Positions 1 to 32,433 of a DNA stretch of 64,000 nt are shown here, piece by piece (within the stretch, counting starts at the first letter, position 1; each line of letters opens with the position of its first letter). The notes beneath the pieces were generated by a model, which made no database searches, was not told where the DNA came from, and saw only the letters and a program-made list of their open reading frames with translations. The stretch covers positions 62,001-126,000 of the forward strand of contig JAHLLR010000002.1 of NCBI GenBank assembly GCA_020444075.1, given 5' to 3'. Made by a program: the position numbers and the translations under genes. This DNA comes from Deltaproteobacteria bacterium. GTDB lineage: Bacteria; Desulfobacterota; Desulfobacteria; Desulfobacterales; Desulfosarcinaceae.

Positions 1-1632
1 CCCGCGGTGAGAGACTATGCCGCTACCCTGCCCCATGTGGTCCATGTGGAGGACAACCTGTTCACCTGCAGCCAGGATACCCAGGACAAGATGAAAGAGG
101 TGATCAAGGAACATGGCATCAACCGCGTGGTGGTGGCCTCCTGTTCCCCGCGAACCCACGAACCGCTGTTCCAGGAGACTATCCGGGATGCCGGTTTGAA
201 CAAATACCTGTTTGAAATGGCCAACATCCGCGACCAGAACACCTGGGTTCACATGAACAACCCGGAACGGGCCACGGCAAAGGCCAAGGACCTGGTTCGC
301 ATGGCTGTCGCCAAGGCCGCCTACATCGAACCGTTGCACCAGGTTCGGCTGGAGGTGACCCAGAAGGTGCTGGTGGTGGGCGGTGGTGTGGCCGGCATGG
401 AGGCGGCGCTGGGCGTTGGCGACCAGGGACTCCCGGTCTATCTGGTGGAGCGGAGCGATGTGCTGGGCGGCGTCGCCCACAGACTGCGGTCCACCTGGCA
501 GGGGGAACCGGTGAAACCCTATCTGGAAGCGCTGATCGACCGGGTGCGCAACCATGAACACATCCGGGTTTTCATGAAAACGGAACCAGTGGAAACCACC
601 GGTATTATGGGCAACTTCACCACCACCCTCATGACTTCCGGTGAATCCCTGACCGAGACGGTGGTGGAACACGGTGCCACCATCATCGCCACCGGCGGCA
701 AGGAATACATCCCCAGCGAGTACCTGTATGGTCAGAACTCCAATGTCATGACCCATTTCGACCTGGATGCCGCCATGGATGCAGACGATCCACGGCTTTC
801 TGATGCCCGGAGCGTGGCATTTATCCAGTGCGTCGGGTCTCGGACTACGGAAAGGCCATACTGCAGCCGGCTGTGCTGTACCCACACGGTCAAGAGCGCC
901 CTGAGTCTCAAGGAACGCAACCCGGAGATGGACATCTATGTGCTCTACCGGGATGTCCGCACTTACGGATTCCGCGAAGAGCTGTATAAAAAGGCCAGGG
1001 AAAAGGGCATCATCTTCATGCGCTACAACCTGGAAGACAACCTGCCCGATGTGAAGGAAGCCGACGGTCAGCTGAGTGTAACGGTAAGGGACCATGTGCT
1101 TCAGATGCCCGTGGAATTGAATCCGGATTTGCTCGTGCTGGCAACAGCCGTGCTGCCCAATGAAAACAAGGACCTGTTTGAGCTCTTCAAAGTGCCGATC
1201 AATGCCGACGGTTTCCTGGTGGAGGCTCATGCCAAGTTGCGTCCCGTTGATTTCGGCTCCGAGGGTATCTTCATGGCCGGATTGGCCCACTACCCCAAGG
1301 CGTTGGACGAAAGCATCGCCCAGGCGCGGGCTTCGGTGTCAAGGGTCATGACCATCCTGTCCCGCGATTCGATCATGGTGGGCGGTGTGGTGGCCGAAGT
1401 GGATCCGGACAAGTGCGCCGTCTGTGTTACCTGCGTGCGAACCTGCCCGTACCACATCCCCTATATCGGTGAGGAGGGTCATGCGGTGATCGAACCGGCC
1501 GAGTGCCATGGCTGCGGTTGTTGTGTGGCCGAATGCCCCGGCAAGGCTATCCAGCTCAAGCATTTTACCGACGAGCAGATCGTGGCCAAGACGGCGGCCC
1601 TTTTTGAAAAGAAAAAAGGGGCAGCGGCTTAA
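1..1632 (+). CDS. hdrA: HdrA-like FAD/iron-sulfur oxidoreductase subunit, 5' end outside window
   Basis: This is the C-terminal 543 codons of a heterodisulfide reductase subunit A-type flavoprotein; the frame is open from base 1, so the start lies upstream. The sequence shows the HdrA N-domain motif VVVASCSPRTHEP, a Rossmann FAD motif (VVGGGVAGMEAA), the inner Cys cluster around YCSRLCC, and two C-terminal [4Fe-4S] motifs (CAVCVTCVRTCP and CHGCGCCVAECP). HdrA proteins carry FAD and several Fe-S clusters and are the hub of flavin-based electron bifurcation in the cytoplasm. It is followed by mvhD, metV and metF on the same strand, which suggests that it feeds or takes electrons from methylenetetrahydrofolate reductase, as reported for the MetFV-HdrABC-MvhD complex of Moorella. 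HdrB/C may lie upstream but cannot be seen. Confidence 0.93.
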   Translation, partial: PAVRDYAATLPHVVHVEDNLFTCSQDTQDKMKEVIKEHGINRVVVASCSPRTHEPLFQETIRDAGLNKYLFEMANIRDQNTWVHMNNPERATAKAKDLVRMAVAKAAYIEPLHQVRLEVTQKVLVVGGGVAGMEAALGVGDQGLPVYLVERSDVLGGVAHRLRSTWQGEPVKPYLEALIDRVRNHEHIRVFMKTEPVETTGIMGNFTTTLMTSGESLTETVVEHGATIIATGGKEYIPSEYLYGQNSNVMTHFDLDAAMDADDPRLSDARSVAFIQCVGSRTTERPYCSRLCCTHTVKSALSLKERNPEMDIYVLYRDVRTYGFREELYKKAREKGIIFMRYNLEDNLPDVKEADGQLSVTVRDHVLQMPVELNPDLLVLATAVLPNENKDLFELFKVPINADGFLVEAHAKLRPVDFGSEGIFMAGLAHYPKALDESIAQARASVSRVMTILSRDSIMVGGVVAEVDPDKCAVCVTCVRTCPYHIPYIGEEGHAVIEPAECHGCGCCVAECPGKAIQLKHFTDEQIVAKTAALFEKKKGAAA

Positions 1633-1726
1633 TCAAACAGGGAATCTGGGCGCCAGAACAACCGGCAGCCTGAGAACTCCGGGCGCCCGACTCATTTTAT
1701 TACCTTAACATCATCGGAGAAAGACC

Positions 1727-2140
1727 ATGAATGAAACCTTTGAACCCCAGATCCTGGCTTACTGCTGCAAGTACTGTGCGTATGCAGCCGCCGATCTTGC
1801 CGGATCCATGCGCTTGAATTATCCAAGCAATGTGAAGGTGATTCAGGTGCCGTGCAGCGGCAGGGTGGACATCCTGCACCTGCTGACCGCCTTCGAAGGC
1901 GGAGCCGACGGCGTATACGTGGCCGGCTGACTGGAAGGTGAATGTCATTTCCTGGAAGGAAATCTCAAAACCAGACGGAAAGTCGAGTACGTTCAGCGAA
2001 CCCTTAAGGAACTGGGCATGGAACCGGAGCGGGTGCAGATGTTCAATCTTTCTTCAGCCCAGGGCCCCCGCTTTGCCGAAATCGCCAACGAAATGACCGA
2101 GACGATCAAGGCGCTGGGACCCAGCCCGGTGACTTCTTAA
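1727..2140 (+). CDS. mvhD: MvhD-type [2Fe-2S] hydrogenase/Hdr delta subunit with in-frame UGA (selenocysteine 68)
   Basis: The frame starts at ATG 1727 after a GGAGAAAG-like ribosome site and runs to an in-frame TGA at 1928-1930. Reading TGA as selenocysteine continues the same frame to TAA at 2138-2140, giving 137 residues, the usual MvhD length. The continuation is family-like: VAG-U-LEGECHFLEGN matches the usual VAGCxxGDCHYxxGN, so Sec68 replaces the first Cys of that pair, and the rest (RTLKELGMEPERVQMF) is also typical. MvhD passes electrons between HdrA and a partner dehydrogenase. The methanogen homologue VhuD is known to use selenocysteine. A hairpin directly after the TGA could be the SECIS. 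A pipeline would split or truncate this gene. Confidence 0.9.
1933..1952 (+). promoter_or_regulatory. candidate bacterial SECIS hairpin in mvhD
   Basis: Starting two bases after the TGA, GGAAG pairs with UUUCC (one G-U), a G bulges out, and UGA pairs with UCA around an AUG loop. Bacterial SECIS elements are short hairpins just 3' of the UGA with a G in the apical loop that SelB binds. The fold was drawn by eye. Confidence 0.5.
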
Positions 2141-2190
2141 ACACAGATTGGAGGCGGATTTTCCGCCTTTGGACCCCAAGAGGTGAACTC

Positions 2191-2859
2191 ATGATAATTG
2201 CAGATCGAAAATCTCTGGAAGAGATACAGGACATGATCAAGGAGTATAAGAAAATTCTTCTTGTGGGCTGCAAAGGGTGCGTTACCGTATGCAACGTGGG
2301 CGGCGCTAAGGAGGTGGGGGTGCTGGCCGCCACCTTGAAAATTGCTCGCAAGAAAGACGGTAATCCCATCGAGATCGACGAGAAGACATTGGAGCGCCAG
2401 TGCGATCCCGAATACGTGGAGCAGATCCGGGACATCTTCGACCAATATGATGCCGTCGTATCAATGGCCTGCGGCGTCGGACCTCAGTTTCTTTCCGAAG
2501 CCTATCCCAGCCAGAAGTTTTTTCCGGCGGTAAATACCAAGTTCTTCGGCGGTGCGGTTCAGCACGGCATCTGGGAGGAGCGATGCGCCGGATGCGGCAC
2601 CTGTGTCATCCACTATTACGACGGGCTGTGCCCCATCGCCCGGTGCTCGAAAAGTCTTCAGCATGGACCCTGCGGCGGCAGCGCGGGCGGTAAGTGCGAA
2701 ATCGCCAAGGATGTGGAGTGCATCTGGGACACCATCGTCAAGAAAAAAATGGAGCAGGGACGGCTCGAGGATCTTCGAACCCTTCGGGCCCCGAAAGACT
2801 GGCAGACGGCAAGGGACGGCGGTCCCCGTAAAAGCATAAGGGAGGAGTTGGTGCAATGA
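2191..2859 (+). CDS. metV: MetV-like zinc-finger/Fe-S partner of methylenetetrahydrofolate reductase
   Basis: This 222-residue protein belongs to the MetV (methylenetetrahydrofolate reductase C-terminal domain) family, the partner subunit of MetF in acetogens and many sulfate reducers. An N-terminal segment has VGCKGCVTVC, and the C-terminal half carries a dense Cys cluster (CAGCGTC, GLCPIARC, GPCGG, GGKC) around residues 130-180 that would hold zinc or Fe-S. The ATGA overlap with metF (2856-2859) indicates translational coupling. With HdrA and MvhD just upstream, it is likely the docking subunit joining MetF to the Hdr electron-transfer module in the reductive acetyl-CoA pathway. A broken paralogue lies at 31.9 kb. 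Confidence 0.88.
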   Translation: MIIADRKSLEEIQDMIKEYKKILLVGCKGCVTVCNVGGAKEVGVLAATLKIARKKDGNPIEIDEKTLERQCDPEYVEQIRDIFDQYDAVVSMACGVGPQFLSEAYPSQKFFPAVNTKFFGGAVQHGIWEERCAGCGTCVIHYYDGLCPIARCSKSLQHGPCGGSAGGKCEIAKDVECIWDTIVKKKMEQGRLEDLRTLRAPKDWQTARDGGPRKSIREELVQ

Positions 2860-3797
2860 GCAATAACGGACTGAAATCAGGGAGTAATCTGGAGAAGGTG
2901 CTCAAGGCAGGCCACTTTGCGTTTACCGGTGAATGCGGACCGCCCAAGGGTGCCAACGTGGAACACCTGAAGGAGAAATTCGAACACCTGCGGGGCAAGG
3001 TGGATGCGGTGAATGTCACCGACAACCAGACCGCCGTGGTGCGCATGTCCAGTGCGGCTGCTTCGGCAATCATGGTGGCCAACGGCATCGAACCCAACTT
3101 TCAGATGGTGTGCCGGGATCGCAACCGCCTGGCCATGATGGCCGACGTCCTCGGGGTGTACTCCCTAGGTATAAGGAACATGCTCTGCCTGTCCGGCGAT
3201 CACCAGAAGTTCGGCAACCATCCCCAGTCAAAGAACGTCTATGACATCGACTCCATGCAGTTGATCGCCATGGTGAAGAAGATGAGGGACGAAGGCAAAT
3301 TCATCAACGATGAGGATATTGACGTGCCGCCGAAGATGTTCATCGGGGCTGCCGCCAACCCCTTTGCCGATCCCTACGAATTCCGGATTTACCGACTGGC
3401 CAACAAGATCGACGCCGGCGCGGACTTCATCCAGACCCAATGCATCTACAACATGCCCCGGTTCAGAGATTTCATGAAAAAAGCCGTGGACATGGGCCTG
3501 ACGGAAAAGGCCTACATCCTCGCCGGCGTCACGCCGATGAAAAGCGCGCGCATGGCGCAGTATATGGCAAAAATGGTTCCAGGCATGGATGTTCCTGAAG
3601 AACTGATCGAACGGTTAAAGGGCGCCGGTAAAGGCAACCAGGCCGAAGAGGGCATCAAGTTTGCCATCGAGCAGATCGAAGAATTCAAAGAGATGGAAGG
3701 GGTTGCCGGGGTCCACCTCATGGCCATCGAATGGGAACACAGGGTTCCGGAAATCGCTGAACGAGCCAACGTGCTGCCCAGGCCCCAGGTCGATTAA
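2856..3797 (+). CDS. metF: 5,10-methylenetetrahydrofolate reductase
   Basis: The 313-residue product is a standard-length MetF TIM barrel that binds FAD and reduces methylene-THF to methyl-THF (or the reverse in an oxidative Wood-Ljungdahl pathway). Recognisable segments are FAFTGECGPPKG at the N-terminus, VNVTDNQTAVVRMSS, CLSGDH, YDIDSMQLIAMV, GAAANPFADP, FIQTQCIYNM and the C-terminal GVHLMAIEWEHRVPEI. It overlaps metV by four bases. The HdrA-MvhD-MetV-MetF order suggests that it works with a bifurcating or ferredoxin-linked Hdr complex rather than plain NADH. Confidence 0.95.
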   Translation: MSNNGLKSGSNLEKVLKAGHFAFTGECGPPKGANVEHLKEKFEHLRGKVDAVNVTDNQTAVVRMSSAAASAIMVANGIEPNFQMVCRDRNRLAMMADVLGVYSLGIRNMLCLSGDHQKFGNHPQSKNVYDIDSMQLIAMVKKMRDEGKFINDEDIDVPPKMFIGAAANPFADPYEFRIYRLANKIDAGADFIQTQCIYNMPRFRDFMKKAVDMGLTEKAYILAGVTPMKSARMAQYMAKMVPGMDVPEELIERLKGAGKGNQAEEGIKFAIEQIEEFKEMEGVAGVHLMAIEWEHRVPEIAERANVLPRPQVD

Positions 3798-22765: not shown

Positions 22766-23128
22766 CTAGTTGACAATGAACGGCGCCGGCATGGCTTCAC
22801 CGGAAAGGGCTTTTTTGATCGCCTCTTCGAGAACGCCCTGGGAGACCATGCCGGTGATGGAATTGATGCTTGCTCCCCCCTGGAAAATCATCAGGGTGGG
22901 GATGGATTTGATGCCATAACGCGCGGCCACGGCGGTGTTGTTGTCGACATCGCATTTAGCGAAAATCATTTGATCTCCGTAAGTTTCCGCCAGAGATGCA
23001 AAGGCTGGCGCCATGGCTTTGCAGGGGCCGCACCAGGGCGCCCAAAAGTCGACGATGACGGGTTTGGACTGCTGAAGGACCTGTTGATCGAACTGGTTGT
23101 CTTGGATTTCAATGACAAATTCGGACAT
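22766..23128 (-). CDS. trxA: thioredoxin
   Basis: A 120-residue classical thioredoxin with WAPWCGPCKAMAP and the cis-Pro loop SIPTLMIFQGG. It is a cytoplasmic dithiol reductant. The start at 23128 follows AAGGAGG. A possible sigma-54 promoter lies 70 bases upstream, and the Cys-rich PAS activator gene follows at 23370, suggesting redox-linked control. Confidence 0.93.
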   Translation of the reverse strand: MSEFVIEIQDNQFDQQVLQQSKPVIVDFWAPWCGPCKAMAPAFASLAETYGDQMIFAKCDVDNNTAVAARYGIKSIPTLMIFQGGASINSITGMVSQGVLEEAIKKALSGEAMPAPFIVN

Positions 23129-23211: not shown

Positions 23212-23369
23212 AATAGGGAAAGCCGCGAAACGATGGGCATGCATTTTATCGTGTCGGGGCTTCAGGAGGTGAGAGTAAGGTTGAGTGAATCAAAATGGAG
23301 GTATTGATTGCTTACTCCGCTTTAAACTCCAGCAAAGGATGTGCCATGATCTTCCTTTTTTTGATGGAT

Positions 23370-24737
23370 TTACAAGTGTACATTGTATTTTTTTATCTGG
23401 TTCCAAACACTGGTTCGAGAAAGACCCAGCAGCCGGGCGGCTTCAGACTGGTTGCCGCTCGCTTGATTCAGCGCTTCAACCAGCCGTTGCCGCTTTAAAT
23501 CATCAAGACTCTCGGTTTGGGTAGTCCGTGCCTGGCGGCACGATGGCAGGGCGGCGGCAATCTGGGGTGGCAGATGGTCGGCTTCGATCATGCCGCCGGG
23601 ACAGCTGACAAAGGCAAATTCAAAGGCGCTTTTCAATTCCCGTGCGTTTCCCGGCCAGGGGTAGGCCATCAGGAGGTCCATGGCATTTTTAGAGATGCCG
23701 TCCAGCTTTTTTTCACTTTTCAGAAGGGTTCGATTGAAAAACGATCGCGCCAGCAGCGGGATATCCCCTATTCGCTCCCGCAACGGAGGAATGTGAATGG
23801 GGATGACGTTGATCCGGTAATAAAAATCCTCACGGAAGGCCCCCTTGGCGATCAGGTCCGGCAGGTGACGGTTCGTCGCCGAGATGATTCGTACGTCGAC
23901 CGCGATTGACCGGTTGTCGCCCACCCGTTCCACGACCTTTTCTTCCAGCACACGCAAGAGTTTGACCTGGGTGGATAGCGGCAGGTCCCCGATTTCATCC
24001 AGGAAGATGTCACCGCCGTCGGCCGCTTCGAAGCGGCCTTCGCGGCTTTTATGGGCACCGGTGTAGGCGCCTTTCACATGGCCGAACAACTCGCTTTCCA
24101 GAAGGGATTCGTTCAGGGCCGCACAATTCACTTTCATGTATGACCGGCTGCCGCGGGTGCCGGCATCATGGATGGCTCTGGCCACCATCTCCTTGCCCGT
24201 ACCGCTTTCACCATAAATGATGACCGGGGCATCGGATCGGGCGGCGTTGGTGATCAGTTCGAACACATGCTGCATGGGTTCGCTGACGCCGATCATCCCG
24301 TAAAAACGATCCTCGGCATCCAACTCACGGCGGTAGCTTGCGATTTGCGTCTCTTTGGCCACCAGATCGGTAATATCGGTCATGGTTTCGACGGCGCCTG
24401 TCACCACGCCGCTTTTATCCTTGAGCACCGAGGCATTCTTGAGGATATGAACGATTCGGCCGTCCTTTCGGGTGATGCTGCATTTCTGCCGCCTCAGGTG
24501 GCCCTTTTTAAACATCACACACCAGTGGCAGCCCTCTTCCTGGCGCGCGATTTCGCAGGAGGTGCAGTTGAGCGTGGTGCATAGTTTCCCCACAATTTCG
24601 TGCCGGCCATAGCCGGTGATCTCCTCGAACGCCCGGTTGACGGAGATGACGATGCCTTCCGGGTTTACGATCATGACGCCATCCTGGATCGTATCCACCA
24701 CGGATTTCCAGTAATAGTTCAGGTCAAAAGTATTCAT
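23370..24737 (-). CDS. sigma-54-dependent activator with Cys-rich PAS sensor domain
   Basis: A 455-residue activator with PAS (residues 8-125), AAA+ and Fis HTH ([20 protein letters not shown]). Walker A is GESGTGKE, the sigma-54 loop GAYTGA and Walker [11 protein letters not shown]. The PAS has six cysteines (53, 58, 61, 70, 73, 86) spaced C-x4-C-x2-C-x8-C-x2-C-x12-C; the first three, the last, and the total span of 33 match the activator at 19.5 kb, so both probably sense a similar ligand or redox cue. It diverges from the tusA/Qmo-like operon, whose -24/-12 promoter and likely enhancer lie in the shared 244-base gap. Confidence 0.9.
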
Positions 24738-24750
24738 ACTCTCAACATTC

Positions 24751-24797
24751 GTTCAAATTGTTAACAGTTCAAATGTCCAAAAAGTTAACACATGAAC
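24751..24797. promoter_or_regulatory. likely enhancer site of the sigma-54 activator
   Basis: GTTCAAATTGTTAAC at 24751-24765 is mirrored by GTTAACACATGAAC at 24784-24797, with GTTCAAAT repeated between them. The pair sits 115-160 bases upstream of the -24 box at 24910 and just before the activator's own start. Confidence 0.55.
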
Positions 24798-24909
24798 AGT
24801 CTTTTGCCAATACCTAAAACACCGACAATCCAATTTTATATACCCAACAAAACATTTAATATCTCGTTATCATTTGTATTTTAATATTTCCTGCCCGGTT
24901 TTCACGTGA

Positions 24910-24925
24910 TGGCATTCCCATTGCT
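24910..24925 (+). promoter_or_regulatory. sigma-54 promoter of the TusA/Qmo-like operon
   Basis: TGGCATTCCCATTGCT keeps GG, the spacing and TTGCT of the consensus TGGCACG-N4-TTGCW. It lies 57 bases upstream of the first gene and faces away from the divergent sigma-54 activator. Confidence 0.7.
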
Positions 24926-24981
24926 CTAAAGATAGCCGTTATCGAACCGGTTATATCATTTTCGGAGATACAAGCGCCTCC

Positions 24982-25275
24982 ATGTTAACCTTTGACCTTC
25001 GCGAAACCCTGATTCCCTTTTCCCTGCTGCAGATTGCCAATGCCTTCAGGCAGATGAAGCCGGGCGAAGAGATGGAGATATACGCCGGTGTCACCCGCAT
25101 TGATGCCGCCATCTTGAAGGATGTCATGCTGATTCTGCCGCAAACGGATTATGACCTGTTATCCAGAGAAAACCGGGTGGGAGATGATCCGGTCATGCGG
25201 CTGATACTGAGAAAAAAGCATTCACTCAAAACACACAAGCAAAAAGGAGATCCATCATGTCAGCAATCGATCTGA
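24982..25275 (+). CDS. TusA-fold protein lacking the catalytic Cys
   Basis: The 97-residue protein aligns with the start of TusA: DLRETLIPFSLLQIANAFRQM against the TusA pattern DxRGxxCPxPLL. The sulfur-carrying Cys is Ile and the second Pro is Ser. The following KPGEEMEIY also matches TusA. It therefore cannot carry a persulfide and may be a structural partner or decoy of the active TusA, whose gene it overlaps by 19 bases. The assignment rests on this short motif. Confidence 0.65.
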   Translation: MLTFDLRETLIPFSLLQIANAFRQMKPGEEMEIYAGVTRIDAAILKDVMLILPQTDYDLLSRENRVGDDPVMRLILRKKHSLKTHKQKGDPSCQQSI

Positions 25276-25511
25276 GTTCCGTGGAAGCGGCGAGTACGGT
25301 AGATGCCAGAGGAAGCGCATGTCCCGGTCCGCTGCTGGAGGCCAAAAAGGGCATCGGCAAAGTCAAAATCGGCGAAGTGCTTGAAATCTATTCCAACGAT
25401 TCCGGCACCCGCACGGATATTCCGGCATGGTCGAAAAAGGTTGGCCATGAGTACATGGGCATGATCGAGGCCGACGGCTACGACAAGCATTTTGTCTGCA
25501 GAAAGAAATAG
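25257..25511 (+). CDS. tusA: TusA-family sulfur carrier
   Basis: An 84-residue TusA/SirA protein with the full site VDARGSACPGPLLEAKKGI; the Cys carries a persulfide handed between sulfurtransferases. The middle (DIPAWSKKVGHEYMGM) is typical. AAAAAGGAG precedes ATG 25257. Placed before MvhD and Qmo-like subunits, it probably delivers sulfane sulfur to, or accepts it from, this complex, as TusA does for sHdr and Dsr systems in sulfur oxidisers. Confidence 0.9.
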   Translation: MSAIDLSSVEAASTVDARGSACPGPLLEAKKGIGKVKIGEVLEIYSNDSGTRTDIPAWSKKVGHEYMGMIEADGYDKHFVCRKK

Positions 25512-25523
25512 AAGGGGGCTGCG

Positions 25524-25943
25524 ATGGCAACATCCCCAAACATAGGCAAGATCCTGATCCTGGCCACCGAGAGCTGCGCTTACCCGGGCGCTAACTCGGT
25601 GGGCCAGGCCCATTCCACCTATCCGGCCAACACCTATATCATGCGGGTCCGGGCGCCGGTGTTGTTCCCCGAACATTTCTATATGGATTGCTTCAAAAAG
25701 GGCATCAGCGGCATCATCATCATGTCATGCGGCGAAGAGTGCCCCTACGACGGGGCTTACCATGCCCTGGCCAAGAGGATTGACCGTGTATACCAGCTGA
25801 TGAAGGCTCAGAATGTGGACCTCCGGCGACTGCGGCTCACCGCCATCTGTACGGTATGCAACCGGGCCTTTTTAAAAGAAGTCAATGATATGAATACCCT
25901 GGTGCAGGAATTGGGCCCACCGGAATTCAAGTCGGCCGCGTAG
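25524..25943 (+). CDS. MvhD-like iron-sulfur subunit
   Basis: A 139-residue MvhD-family protein with its cysteines in ATESCAYPGAN, IIMSCGEECPYDGAY and AICTVCNRAF, all true Cys (no selenocysteine, unlike the copy at 1.7 kb). In Desulfovibrio this domain forms the C-terminus of QmoB; here it is a separate gene two genes before the QmoB-like protein, which ends without it. It would shuttle electrons between the flavoprotein subunits. Confidence 0.87.
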   Translation: MATSPNIGKILILATESCAYPGANSVGQAHSTYPANTYIMRVRAPVLFPEHFYMDCFKKGISGIIIMSCGEECPYDGAYHALAKRIDRVYQLMKAQNVDLRRLRLTAICTVCNRAFLKEVNDMNTLVQELGPPEFKSAA

Positions 25944-25958
25944 AAAGGAACGAGAAAC

Positions 25959-27266
25959 ATGACCGAATCCGCACGCAAGGATCAATTCGATGCGCTGGTG
26001 GTCGGCGGCGGCATCGCCGGCCTTCAATCGGCGCTGGATCTGGCCGACCAGGGGTTCAGCGTGGGTGTTCTGGAAAAAGATGCATCCATCGGCGGGAAGA
26101 TGATCCGCCTGTCCAAGGTATTTCCCACTTTGGACTGCGCCAGCTGCATTACCACACCCAAGATGGCCGCAGCCGCCCACCATGAGAACATCACGATTTT
26201 TACCGATTGCGATCTCAAATCCCTGGACCGCACCGACAATGAGCTGATCGCCCAGGTGGTGCAGCGGCCGCGCTATGTGGATTCGGCCAAATGCATCGGC
26301 TGTCGGCAGTGTGAGTATGGTTGTCCGGTTTATGTTCCCGATGAAGAGGAGGGCGGCTTTACCTTGAGAAAGGCCGTCTATATTCCCTTTTCCAATGCGA
26401 TCCCCCAGGTTGCCACCCTGGATGTGGAACATTGCTCGTTGTGCGGCAAGTGCGCCAAGGTCTGTCCCACCGATGCCGTGGATTACTTCCAGCAACCCCG
26501 GGCGCTGACCCTCACGGCAACAACTGCGGTCATGGCCACGGGCTTCAGGCTTACCCCGATCCACCAGAAAAAAGAATATGGTCAGGGTGGGGTGCCCAAT
26601 GTCATCACCTCGCTGCAGATGGAGCGCCTACTGGCACCGCACGGACCCTACCAGCGGGTGCTTAGGCCTTCGGATGGCAAGGAACCGGAATCCATCGCCT
26701 ATGTCCAGTGCGCCGGTTCCAGGGATAAAAGCCTGGGCATCTCTTACTGCTCGAGGGTGTGCTGCATGTACGCCATCAAGCAGGCCATGCTGCTGTCCGG
26801 CTCCCTGCCCCTGGCGGACATCACTATCTATTACATGGACATCCGGGCTTTCGGCAAAGGCTACGAGCAGTTTTTTCAAAATGCCAAGGCCATGGGCATC
26901 GAGTTCGTCAAGGGGAAAATTGCATCGATTGCCCCGGCAACCGAACAGAAAGTGGCCTTGAAATATGAAGCGCAGGAGGAAGATGGCCGGCTGGCCACCC
27001 GCGAGCACGACCTGGTGGTGTTGAGTCTGGGCATCGTGCCAGACTGGAATCCTGCCGGAACATGCAGTCTGGCTACCGGAGATGATGCCTTTATCCGGTG
27101 TTCCATGCCTCAGATCGCACCCACGTTGACCAATATGGCGGGTGTGTTCGTGGCCGGAGTGGCCGCCGGTCCCAAGGATATCGTCGATACCATTACCGAA
27201 GCCGGAGCGGCTGCCATGGAAGCTGCCAACTACCTGAAAAGCCGCTCCGCCACCAAAGCGGCATAA
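25959..27266 (+). CDS. QmoA/HdrA-like FAD and iron-sulfur subunit
   Basis: The 435-residue flavoprotein starts with VVGGGIAGLQSALDLADQG and has the QmoA hallmark TLDCASCITTPKMAAAAHH. It carries two [4Fe-4S] motifs in the middle (CIGCRQCEYGCP and CSLCGKCAKVCP), the HdrA inner Cys motif YCSRVCCMYA, and a closing FAD segment GVFVAGVAAGPKDIVDTITEAG. Length and order fit QmoA better than HdrA. QmoA works with QmoB and QmoC to link the quinone pool to APS reductase; no aprBA lies near this copy, so the partner may be a sulfur-relay protein. Confidence 0.88.
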   Translation: MTESARKDQFDALVVGGGIAGLQSALDLADQGFSVGVLEKDASIGGKMIRLSKVFPTLDCASCITTPKMAAAAHHENITIFTDCDLKSLDRTDNELIAQVVQRPRYVDSAKCIGCRQCEYGCPVYVPDEEEGGFTLRKAVYIPFSNAIPQVATLDVEHCSLCGKCAKVCPTDAVDYFQQPRALTLTATTAVMATGFRLTPIHQKKEYGQGGVPNVITSLQMERLLAPHGPYQRVLRPSDGKEPESIAYVQCAGSRDKSLGISYCSRVCCMYAIKQAMLLSGSLPLADITIYYMDIRAFGKGYEQFFQNAKAMGIEFVKGKIASIAPATEQKVALKYEAQEEDGRLATREHDLVVLSLGIVPDWNPAGTCSLATGDDAFIRCSMPQIAPTLTNMAGVFVAGVAAGPKDIVDTITEAGAAAMEAANYLKSRSATKAA

Positions 27267-27318
27267 TGAAGCGGTCGTTTAAGATCTTACCATAGCCAGA
27301 CAACTCGGGAGACGGTTG

Positions 27319-29169
27319 ATGACTGCGGAACCATCGGAAAGCACAACGGAAGAGAAAAAAGTCGGGGTTTATATCTGCCATTGCGGCGGAAACATTTCCG
27401 ACCATGTGGATGTGGATCAGCTGGCCAAAAATGTAGCCGGCATCGAGGGTGTCACGGTGACCCATACCAATATGTTCATGTGTTCGGATCCCGGGCAGGA
27501 GTTGATCCAGGCTGACATCAAAAGCGGCAAAATCAACCGTGCCGTGGTGGCTTCCTGCGCACCCAGCCTGCATGAATTGACTTTTCGCAGCGCCATCAAA
27601 CGGGCCAACATGAACCCCTATCTTTACGAACATGCCAACATCCGGGAGCAGGTGAGTTGGGTCCACCACGGCGACACCGCCACGGCCAAAGCCACGCACC
27701 TGGTGGCGGCAGCCATCGCCAAGGCGAAAAATCTGTTGCCCCTGGAACCGATTCGGGTGGACGCCGTCGGTCATGTTACGGTCATCGGCGGCGGCGTTGC
27801 CGGAATGCGGGCGGCACTGGACCTGTCCCGCCGGGGAATCCGGGTGGCCCTGGTGGAAAAAACCGCTTTTCTGGGTGGCAATACCGCCCGGCTGGACCGT
27901 CTGGTGCCCACCAACGATACGGGAGAGAATGTGGTTCGCACCCTAGGCGATGCGGTCATTGCCGATCCCGGCATCACCGTATACGGCTGCGCTCAAATCG
28001 TGGGGTATGAAGGCTACGTGGGCAATTTCAAGTTGACATTGGCGCAATCAACCCTGAAATGCTCCACGATCTCCCATGAAGCTGGAGATTGGGTGTCCAA
28101 TACCGGTTTGTATGTCGGCGAGGCCGGTAAAGACGGCCAATGGGTTGTCGAGTCGGGCGCCATCGTTTTTGCGACCGGGTTTACCCCCTACCGACCCCGG
28201 GAGGGCGAATACGGGTATTTGAATGTTCCCGAGGTCGTCACCCTGCCTGATTTCATTCAGGAGATGGCTCAACTGCCTGCCGGTGGCCGACCGTTGACCA
28301 TCGGCGGCCGGACGATTCGTCGGGTGGCTTTCATCCACTGTGTGGGCAGCCGTCAGATCCCCGGGATCCACGAACCGGGTGGCGACGGCAAGCTGAACGA
28401 GTACTGCTCACGGACCTGCTGCAGCGCCATTTTGCAGGCGGCTGTCCAGATCCGCACCCGCTATCCGGAAACCCGCGTCTTCGAATACTACCGGGATATC
28501 CGTACCTATGGCCGCGGACAGGAGGATTATTATGATCGGGCGTCGGACCAGAATGTCCTGTTTTTCCGCTACGAGCCTGAATCGCCGCCATTGGTGGAGC
28601 GCATCGAGCGGCGGCCATACCCGTTGCGCGTCCGGGTGAAAGACACCTTGACCTTTGGCGAAGAACTGACCGCCGAAGTCGATCTGGTGGTTCTGGGCGT
28701 AGGTATGCAAGCCCATCCCATCGGCGATCTGGTGGATATGATGAAGCTGCCCACCGGCATGGATGGTTTTTTACAGGAAGTTCATCCCAAGCTCAGGCCG
28801 GTTGAAATTGCCAATAACGGCATCCTGCTGGCCGGTGCCTGCCAGGCGCCCATGGACATCAGCGAGGCCTGCAATGCCGCCCAGGCCGCCGCCGCCAAGG
28901 CGGCCACACTGCTGATCAAGGGCCACGTGGAACTGGACCCCTATGTCGCCCAGGTCGATGGGTCGCGCTGCACCGGACATGGCCGCTGTGTCGAAGTGTG
29001 CCCGGTGGAGGGTGCCGTGAGAATGGCAGCCGGCAAGGCGTCCGTCAACCCGGCCCTGTGCACCGGCTGCGGCATCTGCGTGGGTGAATGCCCCGAACAG
29101 GCTATCGATGTGAACGGTTGGACGTTGAAACAATACGAAGAAATGGTGGATGCGATTCTGGCCGCCTGA
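27319..29169 (+). CDS. QmoB/HdrA-like FAD and iron-sulfur subunit
   Basis: The 616-residue protein is a full HdrA-type flavoprotein: GVYICHCGGNISDHVDVD at the start, VVASCAPSLHELTFR, FAD motif VIGGGVAGMRAALDLSRRG, YCSRTCCSAIL, and C-terminal clusters CTGHGRCVEVCP and CTGCGICVGECP. ATG 27319 follows GGGAGACGG. It lacks the C-terminal MvhD domain of Desulfovibrio QmoB, which is supplied by the separate gene at 25.5 kb. The order with QmoA- and QmoC-like genes makes it the QmoB equivalent. Confidence 0.88.
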   Translation: MTAEPSESTTEEKKVGVYICHCGGNISDHVDVDQLAKNVAGIEGVTVTHTNMFMCSDPGQELIQADIKSGKINRAVVASCAPSLHELTFRSAIKRANMNPYLYEHANIREQVSWVHHGDTATAKATHLVAAAIAKAKNLLPLEPIRVDAVGHVTVIGGGVAGMRAALDLSRRGIRVALVEKTAFLGGNTARLDRLVPTNDTGENVVRTLGDAVIADPGITVYGCAQIVGYEGYVGNFKLTLAQSTLKCSTISHEAGDWVSNTGLYVGEAGKDGQWVVESGAIVFATGFTPYRPREGEYGYLNVPEVVTLPDFIQEMAQLPAGGRPLTIGGRTIRRVAFIHCVGSRQIPGIHEPGGDGKLNEYCSRTCCSAILQAAVQIRTRYPETRVFEYYRDIRTYGRGQEDYYDRASDQNVLFFRYEPESPPLVERIERRPYPLRVRVKDTLTFGEELTAEVDLVVLGVGMQAHPIGDLVDMMKLPTGMDGFLQEVHPKLRPVEIANNGILLAGACQAPMDISEACNAAQAAAAKAATLLIKGHVELDPYVAQVDGSRCTGHGRCVEVCPVEGAVRMAAGKASVNPALCTGCGICVGECPEQAIDVNGWTLKQYEEMVDAILAA

Positions 29170-29200
29170 TGGCGCCCATGACACGAAACAGGTGACAAAC

Positions 29201-29488
29201 ATGACAGACAATAATCCGAACGAAGCGATTAAAGCGCTGAGGCAACAACGCAAGACCACCATCGATCGTGCCCGAAAGATGATCAAGGACCAGAATAAAA
29301 AGATTGCCGCCATTAAATCCCAGCTCAGGGAAGAACCGCGAACCGTCCCGGAAATCGCCGCAGCGCTGCGGATGAACGCCTCCGATGTCCTGATTTTTGT
29401 TGCGGCCCTTCGCAAGTACGGCGAGGTGGTCGAGGGTGCCAAGGACGGCGATTATTTCAGATATCAGCTGGCGGCAAGCGCCGGTTAA
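29201..29488 (+). CDS. small winged-helix-like protein in the Qmo-like operon
   Basis: A 95-residue protein with a basic N-terminal helix (IKALRQQRKTTIDRARKMIKD) and a winged-helix-like segment (RTVPEIAAALRMNASDVLIF ... KYGEVVEGAKDGDYFRY). ATG 29201 follows AGGTGACAA. It may regulate the operon or act as an assembly factor. It lies between the QmoB- and QmoC-like genes in the same direction. Confidence 0.72.
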   Translation: MTDNNPNEAIKALRQQRKTTIDRARKMIKDQNKKIAAIKSQLREEPRTVPEIAAALRMNASDVLIFVAALRKYGEVVEGAKDGDYFRYQLAASAG

Positions 29489-29524
29489 CGGTCATCCCAA
29501 AACCTTCAACCATGGAGACGTGAC

Positions 29525-30691
29525 ATGAGTGCCGAAGTTAATCCGGATCTGATCGTGGATCTAAAGAAATTCGGGGTGAAAAGCGCATCGGCATGCTTCA
29601 ACTGCGGAAACTGCACGGCTATTTGTTCCCTGTCGTCGGAAAGCACGCCGTTTCCCAGAAAAGTGATCCGCTATCTGCAGTTGGGGCTGAAGGACAAACT
29701 GATGGAAAGCCCGGAACCCTGGCTGTGCTACTACTGCGGCGACTGCAGCGAGACCTGCCCGCGCCAGGCGGATCCCGGCGAGGTGATGATGGGGCTGCGG
29801 CGATATCTGACATCGATGTATGACTGGACCGGCATCTCCCGGTTGTTTTATACATCCACGGTTTTCGAGGTGTTCTCAATCCTACTAGTCGCGGCGTTGG
29901 TGGGGTTGGGATTCTATACCTTTCACGGCCCGATGTTGACAGATCGGGTGGCCCTGAACGTGTTCGCTCCCAACACCACCATTGAAATTCTGGATCTGAT
30001 CATGCTGGGCGTGCTCTCCTTTCTTCTCCTTACCAATGCCTATCGCATGTTCCGAGCCGTAATGGGCGATCCGGCCCAGTATCCTGAGTTGACCCCTTTC
30101 GAAAAACAGCAGTTTCAGAACCGGATCATCCGCGGCATCCCCGCGCCCCTGTTCATCTCGGAGGCCAAGGAGTTCGTTGTCCACTTTCTCACTCAGAAAA
30201 AATTCATTGCCTGCGGAACCGCTTCGCAACGGATGCAATGGTTCAACCATCTGCTGATAATGACCGGCTATTCCACGGTGTTCCTGCTGGTGGTCGTGGG
30301 CCTCCGCTGGTTCCAGCGAGATGAGATCTATGCCCTGTGGCATCCGGTTCGGCTGCTGGGCTATTATGCCACTTTTGCCATTTTATACGGCACTACCATT
30401 GCCATTGTTGGACGGATAAAAAGAAGCAAAACGGTTTATGCCCATTCCCACTCATCCGACTGGGCCTTTTTGGTTCTGTTGTGGCTGACCACCTTTTCGG
30501 GCATTCTCATTCATGGCACGCGCATGCTGGAAATGCCCCTGACCACCTACTATCTGTATGTGATTCACCTGATGATCGCCGTGCCCATGCTGGTGATCGA
30601 GGTGCCCTTTGCCAAGTGGACCCACCAACTGTACCGCCCGCTGATTGTCTACCTGATGAATGTGAAAAAGCGAGCCATGGCGAGGGCTTAA
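29525..30691 (+). CDS. QmoC-like membrane subunit (HdrC plus heme b/quinone domain)
   Basis: The first 95 residues form an HdrC-type ferredoxin (C24-x2-C27-x2-C30-x3-C34 and CYYCGDCSETCP). The rest is a membrane domain of about six helices with conserved His (NHLLIMTGY, HPVRLLGYY, HGTRMLEM), as in QmoC/HdrE, where they bind heme b and quinone. It should anchor the QmoA/B-like flavoproteins to the inner face of the membrane and exchange electrons with menaquinone. Confidence 0.9.
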   Translation: MSAEVNPDLIVDLKKFGVKSASACFNCGNCTAICSLSSESTPFPRKVIRYLQLGLKDKLMESPEPWLCYYCGDCSETCPRQADPGEVMMGLRRYLTSMYDWTGISRLFYTSTVFEVFSILLVAALVGLGFYTFHGPMLTDRVALNVFAPNTTIEILDLIMLGVLSFLLLTNAYRMFRAVMGDPAQYPELTPFEKQQFQNRIIRGIPAPLFISEAKEFVVHFLTQKKFIACGTASQRMQWFNHLLIMTGYSTVFLLVVVGLRWFQRDEIYALWHPVRLLGYYATFAILYGTTIAIVGRIKRSKTVYAHSHSSDWAFLVLLWLTTFSGILIHGTRMLEMPLTTYYLYVIHLMIAVPMLVIEVPFAKWTHQLYRPLIVYLMNVKKRAMARA

Positions 30692-30742
30692 GTCAAGCAC
30701 CGCCAAATCAACCCATACGTGCATTGAAGAAAGGAACACACC

Positions 30743-31123
30743 ATGAATGAAGCAAAGAGTGAAAAAATCTTATACATCGGCACCTGCGCCGGTGAAAACC
30801 CGGAAAAAGCGGCCATGCCTTTTGTGATGGCCGGTGCGGCACTGGCCATGGACATGGAGGCCGTGATCGCCCTTCAGGGCAACGGTGTCTACCTGGCCCA
30901 GAAAGGTTATGTCGAAAAAATGACCAAACCGGGTGGTTTTCCCCCGATGGTCAAGCTGCTCAAGGATTTTTTGGAGCTGGGCGGCAGGCTGCTGGTCTGT
31001 GTGCCGTGCATCAAAGAGAGAAATATTGACGAGAAGGCGGATCTGGTGGCGGGTGCAGCAACGACGGCTGCCGGTGCCTTGAACATAGAGGCCACCGAAT
31101 CCAAGGCGGTATTTGTATACTAA
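30743..31123 (+). CDS. DsrE-family sulfurtransferase-like protein
   Basis: A 126-residue DsrE-fold protein with the likely sulfur-binding Cys in LLVCVPCIKERNI. DsrE proteins pass persulfide sulfur to or from TusA. It follows the QmoC-like gene after 51 bases with a GAAAGGA site, closing a TusA-to-DsrE set around the Qmo-like subunits. Confidence 0.88.
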   Translation: MNEAKSEKILYIGTCAGENPEKAAMPFVMAGAALAMDMEAVIALQGNGVYLAQKGYVEKMTKPGGFPPMVKLLKDFLELGGRLLVCVPCIKERNIDEKADLVAGAATTAAGALNIEATESKAVFVY

Positions 31124-31179
31124 TCAGGGGCAATCAACGCCGGTTGGTAAATCGACGGAAGGAAGACAGAGGGCATCCT

Positions 31180-31884
31180 ATGGAGGCAACATCCCCAGCA
31201 ATGTCACCCATGCGGATCACGGACATCGCCAACGCAAAAACGGCCGGGGCCGATGTCGTTGTTGAGACACGCTTTGAAATTCTGCCGGTTGATTTTCATC
31301 ACGGCAGCAGTCCTTTTCAGGCCTATATTTTTCTGGCCCACTATCATGGGACCATCGACGCGGCACCCTTCGCGTTCAGAAAATGTTACGCCCGCGGATG
31401 CCCGAACAATTTGTGCACGCACGTTTCCCAGGCCGTGACCATTGCCAACCGATACCTGCAGCGGGATTACCAGAGGCTCAACGCCGCCGGAATCGAGATC
31501 GAGAAAGAGCTGTTCTCGCTGGACGACATGGTCGTCAAATTCGATCGACTGCAGGAAGCCGATCAACCGTCGATGACCATCCCTGAGCTGGTTGGCCTGG
31601 CGCAGGCTGGAAAGAAGATGTCAGTGGATCTCGTCCTCGAATACCTCCCCGCCGTGGAGCATTTCGCCAATCAGAAGAACGCACAGACCTTTTTAAGCGG
31701 TGAACTGACGGCTCGGGTCGGCCAGAAAACCTATCGGTGCCACCGCTGTTTTTCCTGTTTTGCCACTGACCGGTCGGTTGAAGAAAAGCCCCGGGCCATT
31801 AACGTGGCCAATGCCCGCCTGGAGTTGATATTCAAGGAATTCGAACGGGTCGGCATCCGGCACCAGCAGCAATTTTTCCAATAG
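31180..31884 (+). CDS. Cys-rich protein of unknown function
   Basis: The 234-residue product starts best at ATG 31180; the open frame extends to a TTG at 31144. It has two Cys clusters: CYARGCPNNLC around residue 70 and CHRCFSC near residue 200, as in zinc or Fe-S sites. The centre is helical (AVTIANRYLQRDYQRLNAAG). It is soluble, with no signal peptide. I recognise no family. Position after DsrE suggests a role with the Qmo-like/TusA system. Confidence 0.75.
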   Translation: MEATSPAMSPMRITDIANAKTAGADVVVETRFEILPVDFHHGSSPFQAYIFLAHYHGTIDAAPFAFRKCYARGCPNNLCTHVSQAVTIANRYLQRDYQRLNAAGIEIEKELFSLDDMVVKFDRLQEADQPSMTIPELVGLAQAGKKMSVDLVLEYLPAVEHFANQKNAQTFLSGELTARVGQKTYRCHRCFSCFATDRSVEEKPRAINVANARLELIFKEFERVGIRHQQQFFQ

Positions 31885-31942: not shown

Positions 31943-32433
31943 GTGCACGCCACCATTCAAAAACCGATTGAAGAAATTGTCAGTTATATCCGACCCGATG
32001 AAAAGGTGTTTGTGGTCGGCTGCAACAACTGCGCCTGGAAATGCCACTCCAACTCGGCGACCACAAGGAAGCCAAGCCGGTTTTCGATCTGGACTCCGTG
32101 CAGCTCATCGACATGGCCATGGGACTGCGCAACGGCCATGACATCAACAAGACGTCGAAATTGAATGTCCCCATTCAGGTGGGGCCGGTGGTGCTCAAAT
32201 CCCCGCAGATGGGTAAATTTATGAATGCCAATGTCTCCGGGATCGAAGTTCCCCAGTCCTGGATCGATGAAATCGGCAGCGTGGAAAAGGAAGACCGCAA
32301 GATGAAGGCGGCTGAGATGATGGGACGATTCCTGGCTGAAATTAAACACATGGTCCAGGGCGTACACCTTATGCCTCTTGGATGGGCGGACATTGTTCCC
32401 AAAATTTTGCAAACGGCGCGGATTGCTGTTTAA
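31943..32433 (+). pseudogene. collapsed metV-metF remnant
   Basis: From GTG 31943 the frame reads a MetV-type start (IRPDEKVFVVGCNNCAWKCH), then near 32041-32055 a different frame takes over inside MetF (GDHKEAKPVFDLDSVQLI, compare SGDHQKF...YDIDSMQLI in metF). After a second in-frame gap it continues KSPQMGKFMNANVSGIEVP to GVHLMPLGWADIVPKIL, the MetF C-terminus. Most of MetV and the first and middle parts of MetF are gone. It is a deletion relic of a second metVF pair, different in sequence from the one at 2.2 kb. Confidence 0.8.

What the first reader, a model, noticed from the sequence alone, without database searches (positions are those of the whole stretch)
24982..31123. Qmo-like quinone complex packaged with TusA and DsrE sulfur-relay genes
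Seen: two TusA-type genes, a free MvhD, QmoA-like, QmoB/HdrA-like, a winged-helix-like gene, QmoC-like and DsrE on one strand, with no aprBA or sat beside them in the window. Known: QmoABC normally serves APS reductase; TusA and DsrE carry persulfide sulfur. Inference: a membrane complex that moves electrons between the quinone pool and a protein-bound sulfane-sulfur substrate, perhaps a distinct Qmo branch in Desulfobacterota.
Basis: partly seen in the sequence, partly recalled or inferred. Interest (0 to 1): 0.78.

Follow-up and report, generated by a model that had tools for sequence, protein, structure and literature searches.

The report
Sulfur-carrier redox cassette, swappable electron partner
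Many sulfate-breathing bacteria carry a tightly linked gene set that appears to pass electrons between sulfur held on small carrier proteins and an exchangeable partner, which in this genome is the membrane quinone pool; this would be a sulfur route separate from their known sulfate-reduction machinery.

Summary
In detail: tusX-tusA-mvhD-qmoA-qmoB-winged helix-qmoC-dsrE on one strand, gaps -20 to 51 bp, no aprBA or sat found in the window. The first 'TusA' lacks the catalytic cysteine. The cassette recurs in Desulfobacterota: among loci with enough flank tusA and mvhD are in 67 of 67, dsrE in 55 of 56. QmoA orthologues occur in 30 of 395 phylum genomes, 28 with dsrA. 'QmoA' and 'QmoB' are not canonical Qmo but HdrA-type clades of their own. 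Only QmoC is Qmo-like, and it is exchangeable: of 56 loci 17 have QmoC, 36 HdrC+HdrB, 2 an HdrBC fusion, 1 neither; trees force repeated swaps. A PAS-sigma54 activator (divergent upstream in 40 of 54) and a -24/-12 motif (42 of 69) frame the operon. Best reading: an inducible HdrA-type hub exchanging electrons between TusA/DsrE-bound sulfane sulfur and a variable partner, here menaquinone. Substrate, complex and direction are inferred. A methylene-THF reductase link is a weaker rival; the adjacent metVF in the window is a relic.

The parts
23370..24737 (-). Divergent PAS-sigma54 activator with a conserved cysteine cluster in the PAS domain (C53, C58, C61, C73, C86)
   Evidence: Pfam Sigma54_activat and PAS; of 54 loci with more than 4.5 kb upstream, 40 have it divergent upstream, 5 upstream on the same strand, 1 downstream only, 8 none; Cys conserved in 63-68 of 70 (that set includes regulator paralogues, 5 short rows dropped)
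24910..24925 (+). Sigma54-type -24/-12 motif TGGCATTCCCATTGCT
   Evidence: same motif within 900 bp upstream of tusA in 42 of 69 loci against 2.0 sites expected
24982..25275 (+). tusX: TusA-fold protein without the CPxP cysteine, 97 aa
   Evidence: a tusX homologue lies upstream in 15 of 67 loci
25257..25511 (+). tusA: sulfur carrier with CPGP
   Evidence: Pfam 2e-18; CPGP in all TusAs above 100 bits, 87 of 87 loci
25524..25943 (+). mvhD (FlpD): free-standing Fe-S electron-transfer protein
   Evidence: Pfam 1e-18; 67 of 67 loci
25959..27266 (+). HdrA-type flavo-FeS protein called QmoA (435 aa)
   Evidence: separate clade 100*
27316..29169 (+). HdrA-type flavo-FeS protein called QmoB (617 aa), without the C-terminal MvhD domain
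   Evidence: separate clade 95*
29150..29488 (+). Winged-helix protein, 112 aa, overlapping qmoB by 20 bp
   Evidence: recurrent family in 71 of 86 loci clustered, some of them cut short by contig ends
29525..30691 (+). QmoC-like: HdrC-type 2x[4Fe-4S] domain fused to a membrane cytochrome-b-like domain (exchangeable slot)
   Evidence: NCBIfam qmoC 187.8 of 300 bits; Cys 24-78, H242, H348, H367 conserved
30743..31123 (+). DsrE-family protein with CxPC (C86, C89)
   Evidence: Pfam 7e-16; both Cys in 70 of 70, 3 short rows dropped
31144..31884 (+). orf246: unknown Cys-rich associate of the cassette
   Evidence: in 40 of 86 loci; five Cys in 38 of 38, 2 short rows dropped; no PDB fold match at E <= 0.001
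31943..32432 (+). metV-metF relic with two internal deletions relative to L127

Best explanation
A sigma54-controlled operon encodes an HdrA-type redox hub (two HdrA-like flavo-FeS proteins, MvhD and a winged-helix subunit). It exchanges electrons between sulfane sulfur carried as persulfide on TusA and DsrE and a replaceable partner module. In this genome the partner is QmoC, so the electrons meet the menaquinone pool; in 36 of 56 loci it is HdrC plus a one-CCG HdrB, and in a few an HdrD-like HdrBC protein, so they meet a cytosolic thiol/disulfide. Shown: gene content, order, conserved cysteines, promoter motif, regulator, separate ancestry from canonical QmoAB, and repeated replacement of the partner. 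Inferred: that the motif and regulator act, that the proteins form one complex, that TusA/DsrE deliver or accept the substrate, and the direction. I favour net oxidation of carrier-bound sulfur towards menaquinone (about 55:45 over reduction), because the quinone is the more oxidising partner (recalled potentials). The confidence covers either direction.
For: Linkage: tusA 67/67, mvhD 67/67, dsrE 55/56 (53 downstream, 2 upstream). Carrier cysteines invariant: TusA CPGP 87/87 loci, DsrE C86 and C89 70/70; C86 aligns with the Cys of DsrE-family structure 3mc3. 28 of 30 cassette genomes have dsrA against 162 of 365 others, Fisher p 9e-8, not corrected for relatedness; with G001 (partial contig, dsrA) and G179 (divergent, no dsrA) added, 29 of 32. 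Of the two dsrA-negative genomes, both keep the HdrA pair and wH without dsrE there, and G252 has no tusA; G208's contig begins inside qmoA, so its tusA cannot be judged. Partner exchange in the same slot. QmoC keeps the dicluster Cys and three His shared with apr-linked QmoC. Seven of nine QmoC-cassette genomes also hold a canonical QmoC over the cut-off, so this is a second system there. Promoter motif and regulator.
Against: No biochemistry or expression data. No catalytic subunit with proven persulfide chemistry; the window version has no CCG (HdrB) site, so where sulfur chemistry would happen is unclear. TusA and DsrE may serve another role. The dsrA association is confounded by phylogeny. 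metF lies downstream in 13 of 46 loci, the window's relic included, which fits another substrate. G179 carries a divergent cassette with TusA and DsrE but no aprA, dsrA or DsrC. 27 of 69 loci lack the promoter motif.
Confidence: 0.5

Rival explanations
1. The cassette is the electron partner of a MetVF methylene-THF reductase, as HdrABC-MvhD is for MetVF in some acetogens (recalled; only a search listing was seen), passing electrons from methyl-THF oxidation to quinone or disulfide; TusA/DsrE are accessory.
For: Of 46 loci with more than 7.8 kb downstream, metF lies downstream in 13 (the window's relic included) and upstream in 1 (L120). By partner: 11 of 29 HdrB-type; of 15 QmoC-type only L095 has it downstream besides the window's relic.
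Against: 32 of 46 loci have no metF in the fetched DNA while TusA/DsrE are near constant. In the window the adjacent metVF is a relic with two deletions, the cassette is intact, and intact metVF pairs sit beside other HdrA genes at window 2191-3797 and on contig C52.
Confidence: 0.12
2. An HdrA-type, perhaps electron-bifurcating, oxidoreductase with an unknown carbon or thiol substrate, in which TusA and DsrE supply sulfur for cofactor maturation or persulfide regulation and are not substrates.
For: HdrA-type proteins are versatile; TusA is known to serve several sulfur-delivery roles (recalled). G252, without dsrA, keeps the HdrA pair plus wH without tusA or dsrE, so the core can exist without them.
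Against: Near-invariant tusA and dsrE linkage in this clade and invariant cysteines.
Confidence: 0.2
3. The reductive branch of the main reading (counted inside its 0.5): a cytoplasmic carrier-bound sulfane-sulfur reductase that makes sulfide using quinol, or electrons combined from ferredoxin or NADH.
For: Same anatomy; 8 of 9 QmoC-cassette genomes have aprA and dsrA, as sulfidogens do. A thioredoxin gene with a sigma54-like site (23331-23346, -) lies next to the regulator in the window.
Against: Quinol is a weak reductant for persulfide (recalled potentials); it would need energy input or confurcation, which sequence cannot show.
Confidence: 0.22
4. It is simply a second copy of canonical QmoABC serving APS reductase.
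For: QmoC relatives at about 60% identity sit beside sat or apr in other families.
Against: QmoA/QmoB outside the canonical clade; none of the 86 cassette loci holds apr or sat in the fetched DNA at E <= 1e-20 (many contigs are short); the genome has canonical aprBA-qmoABC elsewhere.
Confidence: 0.03

Closest known systems
Type II Qmo (Neukirchen et al. 2023, PMC10504309, section 9 and passages read)
   Same: QmoA/B closer to HdrA than to canonical QmoAB; found with or without Apr/Dsr; function stated as unclear
   Different: That section names no TusA/DsrE linkage, winged-helix gene, sigma54 control or QmoC/HdrCB exchange inside one cassette; its supplements were not read, so overlap of members is possible
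Canonical QmoABC (type I)
   Same: Gene order A-B-C and a QmoC with dicluster and cytochrome-b-like part
   Different: MvhD is a separate gene, QmoA/B are in other clades, no apr/sat beside it
sHdr sulfane-sulfur oxidation system (passages of PMC10451225)
   Same: Hdr-type proteins with TusA and a DsrE protein
   Different: Two HdrA-like proteins plus MvhD and wH; no lipoate-binding (GcvH-type) gene beside the cassette in 9 of 9 genomes; the QmoC variant is membrane-linked
YTD cluster / DsrEFH type II (passages of PMC12998232, PMC13293266, PMC13047784)
   Same: TusA next to a DsrE-type protein in Desulfobacterota
   Different: No YedE-type transporter beside the cassette in the window's genome; has an Hdr/Qmo redox core
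MetVF-HdrABC-MvhD (acetogens; recalled, listing only)
   Same: HdrA, HdrB, HdrC and MvhD content; metVF adjacent in some loci
   Different: TusA, DsrE and wH are the constant parts and metVF is not; two separate HdrA-like subunits

Membership tests
Canonical QmoABC | QmoA and QmoB fall in the apr-linked QmoAB clade | tested here: not met
   canonical A+B 32 rows 100*, cassette A and B outside
Canonical QmoABC | QmoB carries a C-terminal MvhD domain | tested here: not met
   617 aa, no FlpD match; MvhD is a separate gene
Canonical QmoABC | Linked to aprBA or sat | tested here: not met
   none found in the window or in the fetched DNA of 86 cassette loci
Canonical QmoABC | QmoC passes NCBIfam NF038018 cut-off | tested here: not met
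   187.8 of 300 bits
Canonical QmoABC | QmoC has 2x[4Fe-4S] Cys and conserved His in a membrane domain | tested here: met
   8 Cys, H242, H348, H367 shared with 10 of 10 typical QmoC; haem binding itself not tested
Type II Qmo | QmoA/B closer to HdrA than to type I QmoAB | tested here: met
   as far as the few HdrA rows included allow
Type II Qmo | Groups with the published type II members (Ammonifex, Vulcanisaeta) | not tested
   those sequences were not fetched; published trees are in supplements not read
sHdr system | TusA and DsrE linked to Hdr genes | tested here: met
sHdr system | Lipoate-binding protein LbpA (GcvH-like) in the cluster | tested here: not met
   PF01597 hits in 9 of 9 QmoC-cassette genomes, none next to the cassette; the nearest on the same contig are about 190 kb (G179) and 500 kb (G129) away
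YTD cluster | YedE-family gene beside tusA/dsrE | tested here: not met
   the window genome's PF04143 hits are on contigs C79 and C31, not on C93; 3 of 9 cassette genomes have none
MetVF-Hdr complex | Intact metVF beside the Hdr genes | tested here: not met
   relic in the window; metF downstream in 12 other loci of 46
Electron-bifurcating HdrA | Bifurcation activity | not testable with these tools
   needs biochemistry

The most novel reading that the evidence does not exclude
Sulfate reducers of many Desulfobacterota families carry an inducible respiratory module, separate from Apr-Qmo and Dsr, that couples protein-bound sulfane sulfur (TusA/DsrE persulfide) to a plug-in electron partner. 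The membrane quinone module (QmoC) and the cytosolic disulfide module (HdrCB) have replaced each other repeatedly in the same gene slot, so one sulfur-carrier core can run as either a quinone-linked or a thiol-linked enzyme.
Probability: 0.35. Interest if true: 0.8.

Novelty: new variant of a known kind. Interest (0 to 1): 0.62.

Why it matters
How sulfate reducers handle sulfane sulfur in the cytoplasm (oxidation, disproportionation, reduction) is open. A conserved, apparently regulated TusA/DsrE-Hdr cassette in cultured species such as Desulfosarcina widdelii, Desulfospira joergensenii and strain NaphS2 (HdrCB form in all three) gives a concrete, testable candidate. The exchange of QmoC for HdrCB suggests that HdrA-type cores can be re-plugged between quinone and disulfide partners, which bears on how Qmo itself arose.

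Tried and rejected
Canonical second Qmo copy: rejected for QmoA/QmoB. 'QmoC is unique to the cassette': rejected; close relatives sit beside canonical QmoAB, 7 of 20 with apr or sat in the fetched DNA. DsrD-like winged helix: considered; the 50 PDB matches shown were mostly ArsR- and MarR-type regulators and no DsrD appeared among them. The wH has no conserved Cys, so a SqrR-like persulfide sensor is unlikely. sHdr and YTD membership: the LbpA and YedE features are not met. orf246 function: no Pfam or NCBIfam match, no PDB fold match at E <= 0.001.

Literature: the searches listed no title or abstract start that describes this cassette, and the passages read do not. Read in passages: PMC13293266, PMC10504309 (also section 9 whole), PMC12998232, PMC12142623, PMC4911364, PMC5109826, PMC10451225, PMC13047784, PMC8780430; other listed papers were seen only as listings. 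Only open-licence papers are held and supplements could not be opened.

In the phylum searches at most four first-look candidates per genome were scored, so misses are possible. Of the 30 cassette genomes the loci of 27 were read; G196, G213 and G321 were not fetched. Trees are the 'quick' kind with SH-aLRT support; proteins over 950 aa (L071 QmoA and six or so tandem HdrA proteins) were left out of the tree; L196 was dropped as a copy of L089. Long rows are placed with less certainty, and warns of long branches meeting. On recheck the odds of the reductive rival were set to 0.22 because it is part of the main 0.5; no other odds were changed.
Full report
What is there. On the + strand at 24982-31123 eight genes follow with gaps of -20 to 51 bp: tusX, tusA, mvhD, 'qmoA', 'qmoB', a winged-helix gene, qmoC and dsrE. 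A ninth, orf246, follows after 20 bp. Domain searches support the names, except that the first gene is a cysteine-less TusA-like protein below Pfam's cut-off. Upstream and divergent is a PAS-sigma54 activator (23370-24737). A -24/-12 motif, TGGCATTCCCATTGCT (24910-24925), ends 56 bp before tusX.

How widespread. A QmoC search of 395 phylum genomes and annotation of the hits showed the cassette in nine genomes, the window's included (G001 only partly on its contig; G179 divergent). A scan of named genomes with the QmoA alignment gave 80 loci, including strain NaphS2, Desulfosarcina widdelii, D. cetonica, Desulfospira joergensenii and Desulfamplus. In 85 loci surveyed, tusA and mvhD are present in 67 of 67 with more than 1.5 kb upstream, and dsrE in 55 of 56 with more than 5.2 kb downstream (53 downstream, 2 upstream of the core, L165 without). 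Of 54 loci with more than 4.5 kb upstream, 40 have the activator divergent upstream, 5 upstream on the same strand, 1 downstream only and 8 none. The sigma54 motif lies within 900 bp upstream of tusA in 42 of 69 loci against 2.0 sites expected from the background of the same DNA.

Who carries it. At E <= 1e-160 the cassette QmoA is in 30 of 395 genomes. dsrA (E <= 1e-60) is in 28 of these and in 190 of 395 overall; Fisher p 9e-8, not corrected for kinship. Adding G001 and G179, which that cut-off missed, makes 29 of 32. The two without dsrA (G208, G252) have the HdrA pair and wH but no dsrE there; G252 has no tusA, and G208's contig begins inside qmoA. Of nine genomes with a QmoC cassette, eight have aprA and dsrA and seven also have a second QmoC over the NCBIfam cut-off. 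G179 is the exception: no aprA, dsrA or DsrC, and its QmoA has a glutamate-synthase-like NAD(P)-binding insert.

Ancestry. In a tree of the HdrA core (79 rows) canonical QmoA and QmoB form one clade (100*). Cassette QmoA (19 rows, 100*) and cassette QmoB (20 rows, 95*) are separate clades outside it. In the QmoC tree (66 rows) typical apr-linked QmoC (10 rows, 100*) is far away. The window's QmoC is in an 18-row cassette clade (98*). Near it is a 24-row clade holding 20 QmoCs beside canonical QmoAB (7 of them with apr or sat in the fetched DNA: L050, L051, L053, L054, L057, L059, L081), 2 beside an ETF:quinone oxidoreductase, and two cassette QmoCs (L149, L169). One clade for all cassette QmoCs is rejected (p-AU 1e-101 for 23 rows; 0.003 for the 20 rows left without L064, L071 and L082).

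The exchangeable slot. After wH most loci have no QmoC. Of 56 loci, 17 have QmoC, 36 have HdrC (about 100 aa) plus an HdrB-like protein (about 310 aa), 2 have an HdrBC fusion and 1 (L171) neither. Order varies a little: dsrE precedes tusA in L114, L117, L132, L137 and L168, and precedes the partner gene in L169 and L170. The HdrB keeps one CCG motif (C213, C248, C249, C283, C286 in 47-49 of 49); the fusion has two CCG stretches. On a tree of concatenated QmoA+QmoB (73 rows: 46 HdrCB, 22 QmoC, 5 HdrD-like) partner type changes at least 5 times, with at least 4 changes forced for QmoC by starred branches; one clade for QmoC-type cassettes is rejected (p-AU 2.7e-7). So quinone-linked and thiol-linked partners have replaced each other. 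A 773-aa protein outside the cassette (L073) even joins a QmoC part to an HdrC/CCG part.

Catalytic clues. TusA's CPGP is in 87 of 87 loci (TusAs above 100 bits). DsrE's C86 and C89 are in 70 of 70, C86 aligning with the Cys of a DsrE-family structure, 3mc3. MvhD's C56, C69, C73, C109 and C112 are in 84-89 of 89; QmoA keeps eight ferredoxin-type cysteines and the CX12CX3CC pattern in 96 of 96. QmoC keeps eight Cys and H242, H348 and H367, shared with typical QmoC. Reading these as cluster and haem ligands is family knowledge, not tested here.

Mechanism. The constant parts are two sulfur-carrier proteins with invariant cysteines and an HdrA-type electron core; the variable part is the electron partner. 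The simplest reading is that sulfane sulfur on TusA/DsrE is the substrate and the partner decides where electrons go or come from. In the window this is the menaquinone pool. Direction is not shown; I lean to oxidation on recalled potentials. Neither complex formation nor persulfide turnover is shown.

Rivals. Of 46 loci with more than 7.8 kb downstream, metF lies downstream in 13, the window's relic included, and upstream in 1, so a methylene-THF reductase link is a real alternative, mainly for the HdrB form (11 of 29); of 15 QmoC-type loci only L095 has it downstream besides the window's relic. In the window the adjacent metVF is three blocks separated by deletions, while intact metVF pairs sit beside HdrA genes at 2191-3797 and on contig C52. 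The cassette thus seems to persist without it. A maturation or regulatory role for TusA/DsrE remains open.

Known and new. Neukirchen et al. 2023 (PMC10504309, section 9 read) define a type II Qmo closer to HdrA with unclear function; this cassette may belong there. It lacks the LbpA of sHdr and the YedE of YTD. The sulfur-relay linkage, regulator, promoter motif and partner exchange did not appear in the papers found (nine papers read in passages, the rest seen only as listings). I therefore rate it a new variant of a known kind.

Noticed in passing
window 31943-32432: metV-metF relic: the first 36 or so codons of metV, then two separate pieces of metF, relative to L127; could be gene decay or an assembly error.
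   Followed up: partly
window 1-3797: An HdrA-type protein running in from the contig upstream (part of a 1502-aa frame), followed by an intact metV-metF pair.
   Followed up: partly
window 22766-23128 and 23331-23346 (-): Thioredoxin gene beside the cassette regulator with a sigma54-like site upstream; a close thioredoxin relative (E < 1e-20) lies near the cassette in 5 of 86 loci counting the window.
   Followed up: partly
window 31144-31884: orf246, an unnamed Cys-rich family linked to the cassette in 40 of 86 loci, predicted as two beta-beta-beta-alpha repeats with no clear PDB match.
   Followed up: partly
L071 12992-16318: Cassette QmoA with a large glutamate-synthase-like NAD(P)-binding insert in a genome without aprA, dsrA or DsrC.
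   Followed up: partly
L062 9468-12388: A cassette-type QmoC sits directly after an ETF:quinone oxidoreductase gene, without QmoA or QmoB in the fetched DNA; L063 has the same QmoC alone.
   Followed up: partly
L165, L170: Cassettes in two MAGs labelled Rhodospirillales, with an HdrBC fusion; transfer or misbinning.
   Followed up: no
L073 11826-14147; similar in L083, L084, L085: About 775-aa protein; in L073 it joins a QmoC part to an HdrC/CCG (HdrD-like) part, next to large HdrA-type proteins; the other three were not scanned.
   Followed up: partly
G000:C14 about 24168-30789: dsrC lies a few kb from a large HdrA-type gene in the window's own genome.
   Followed up: no
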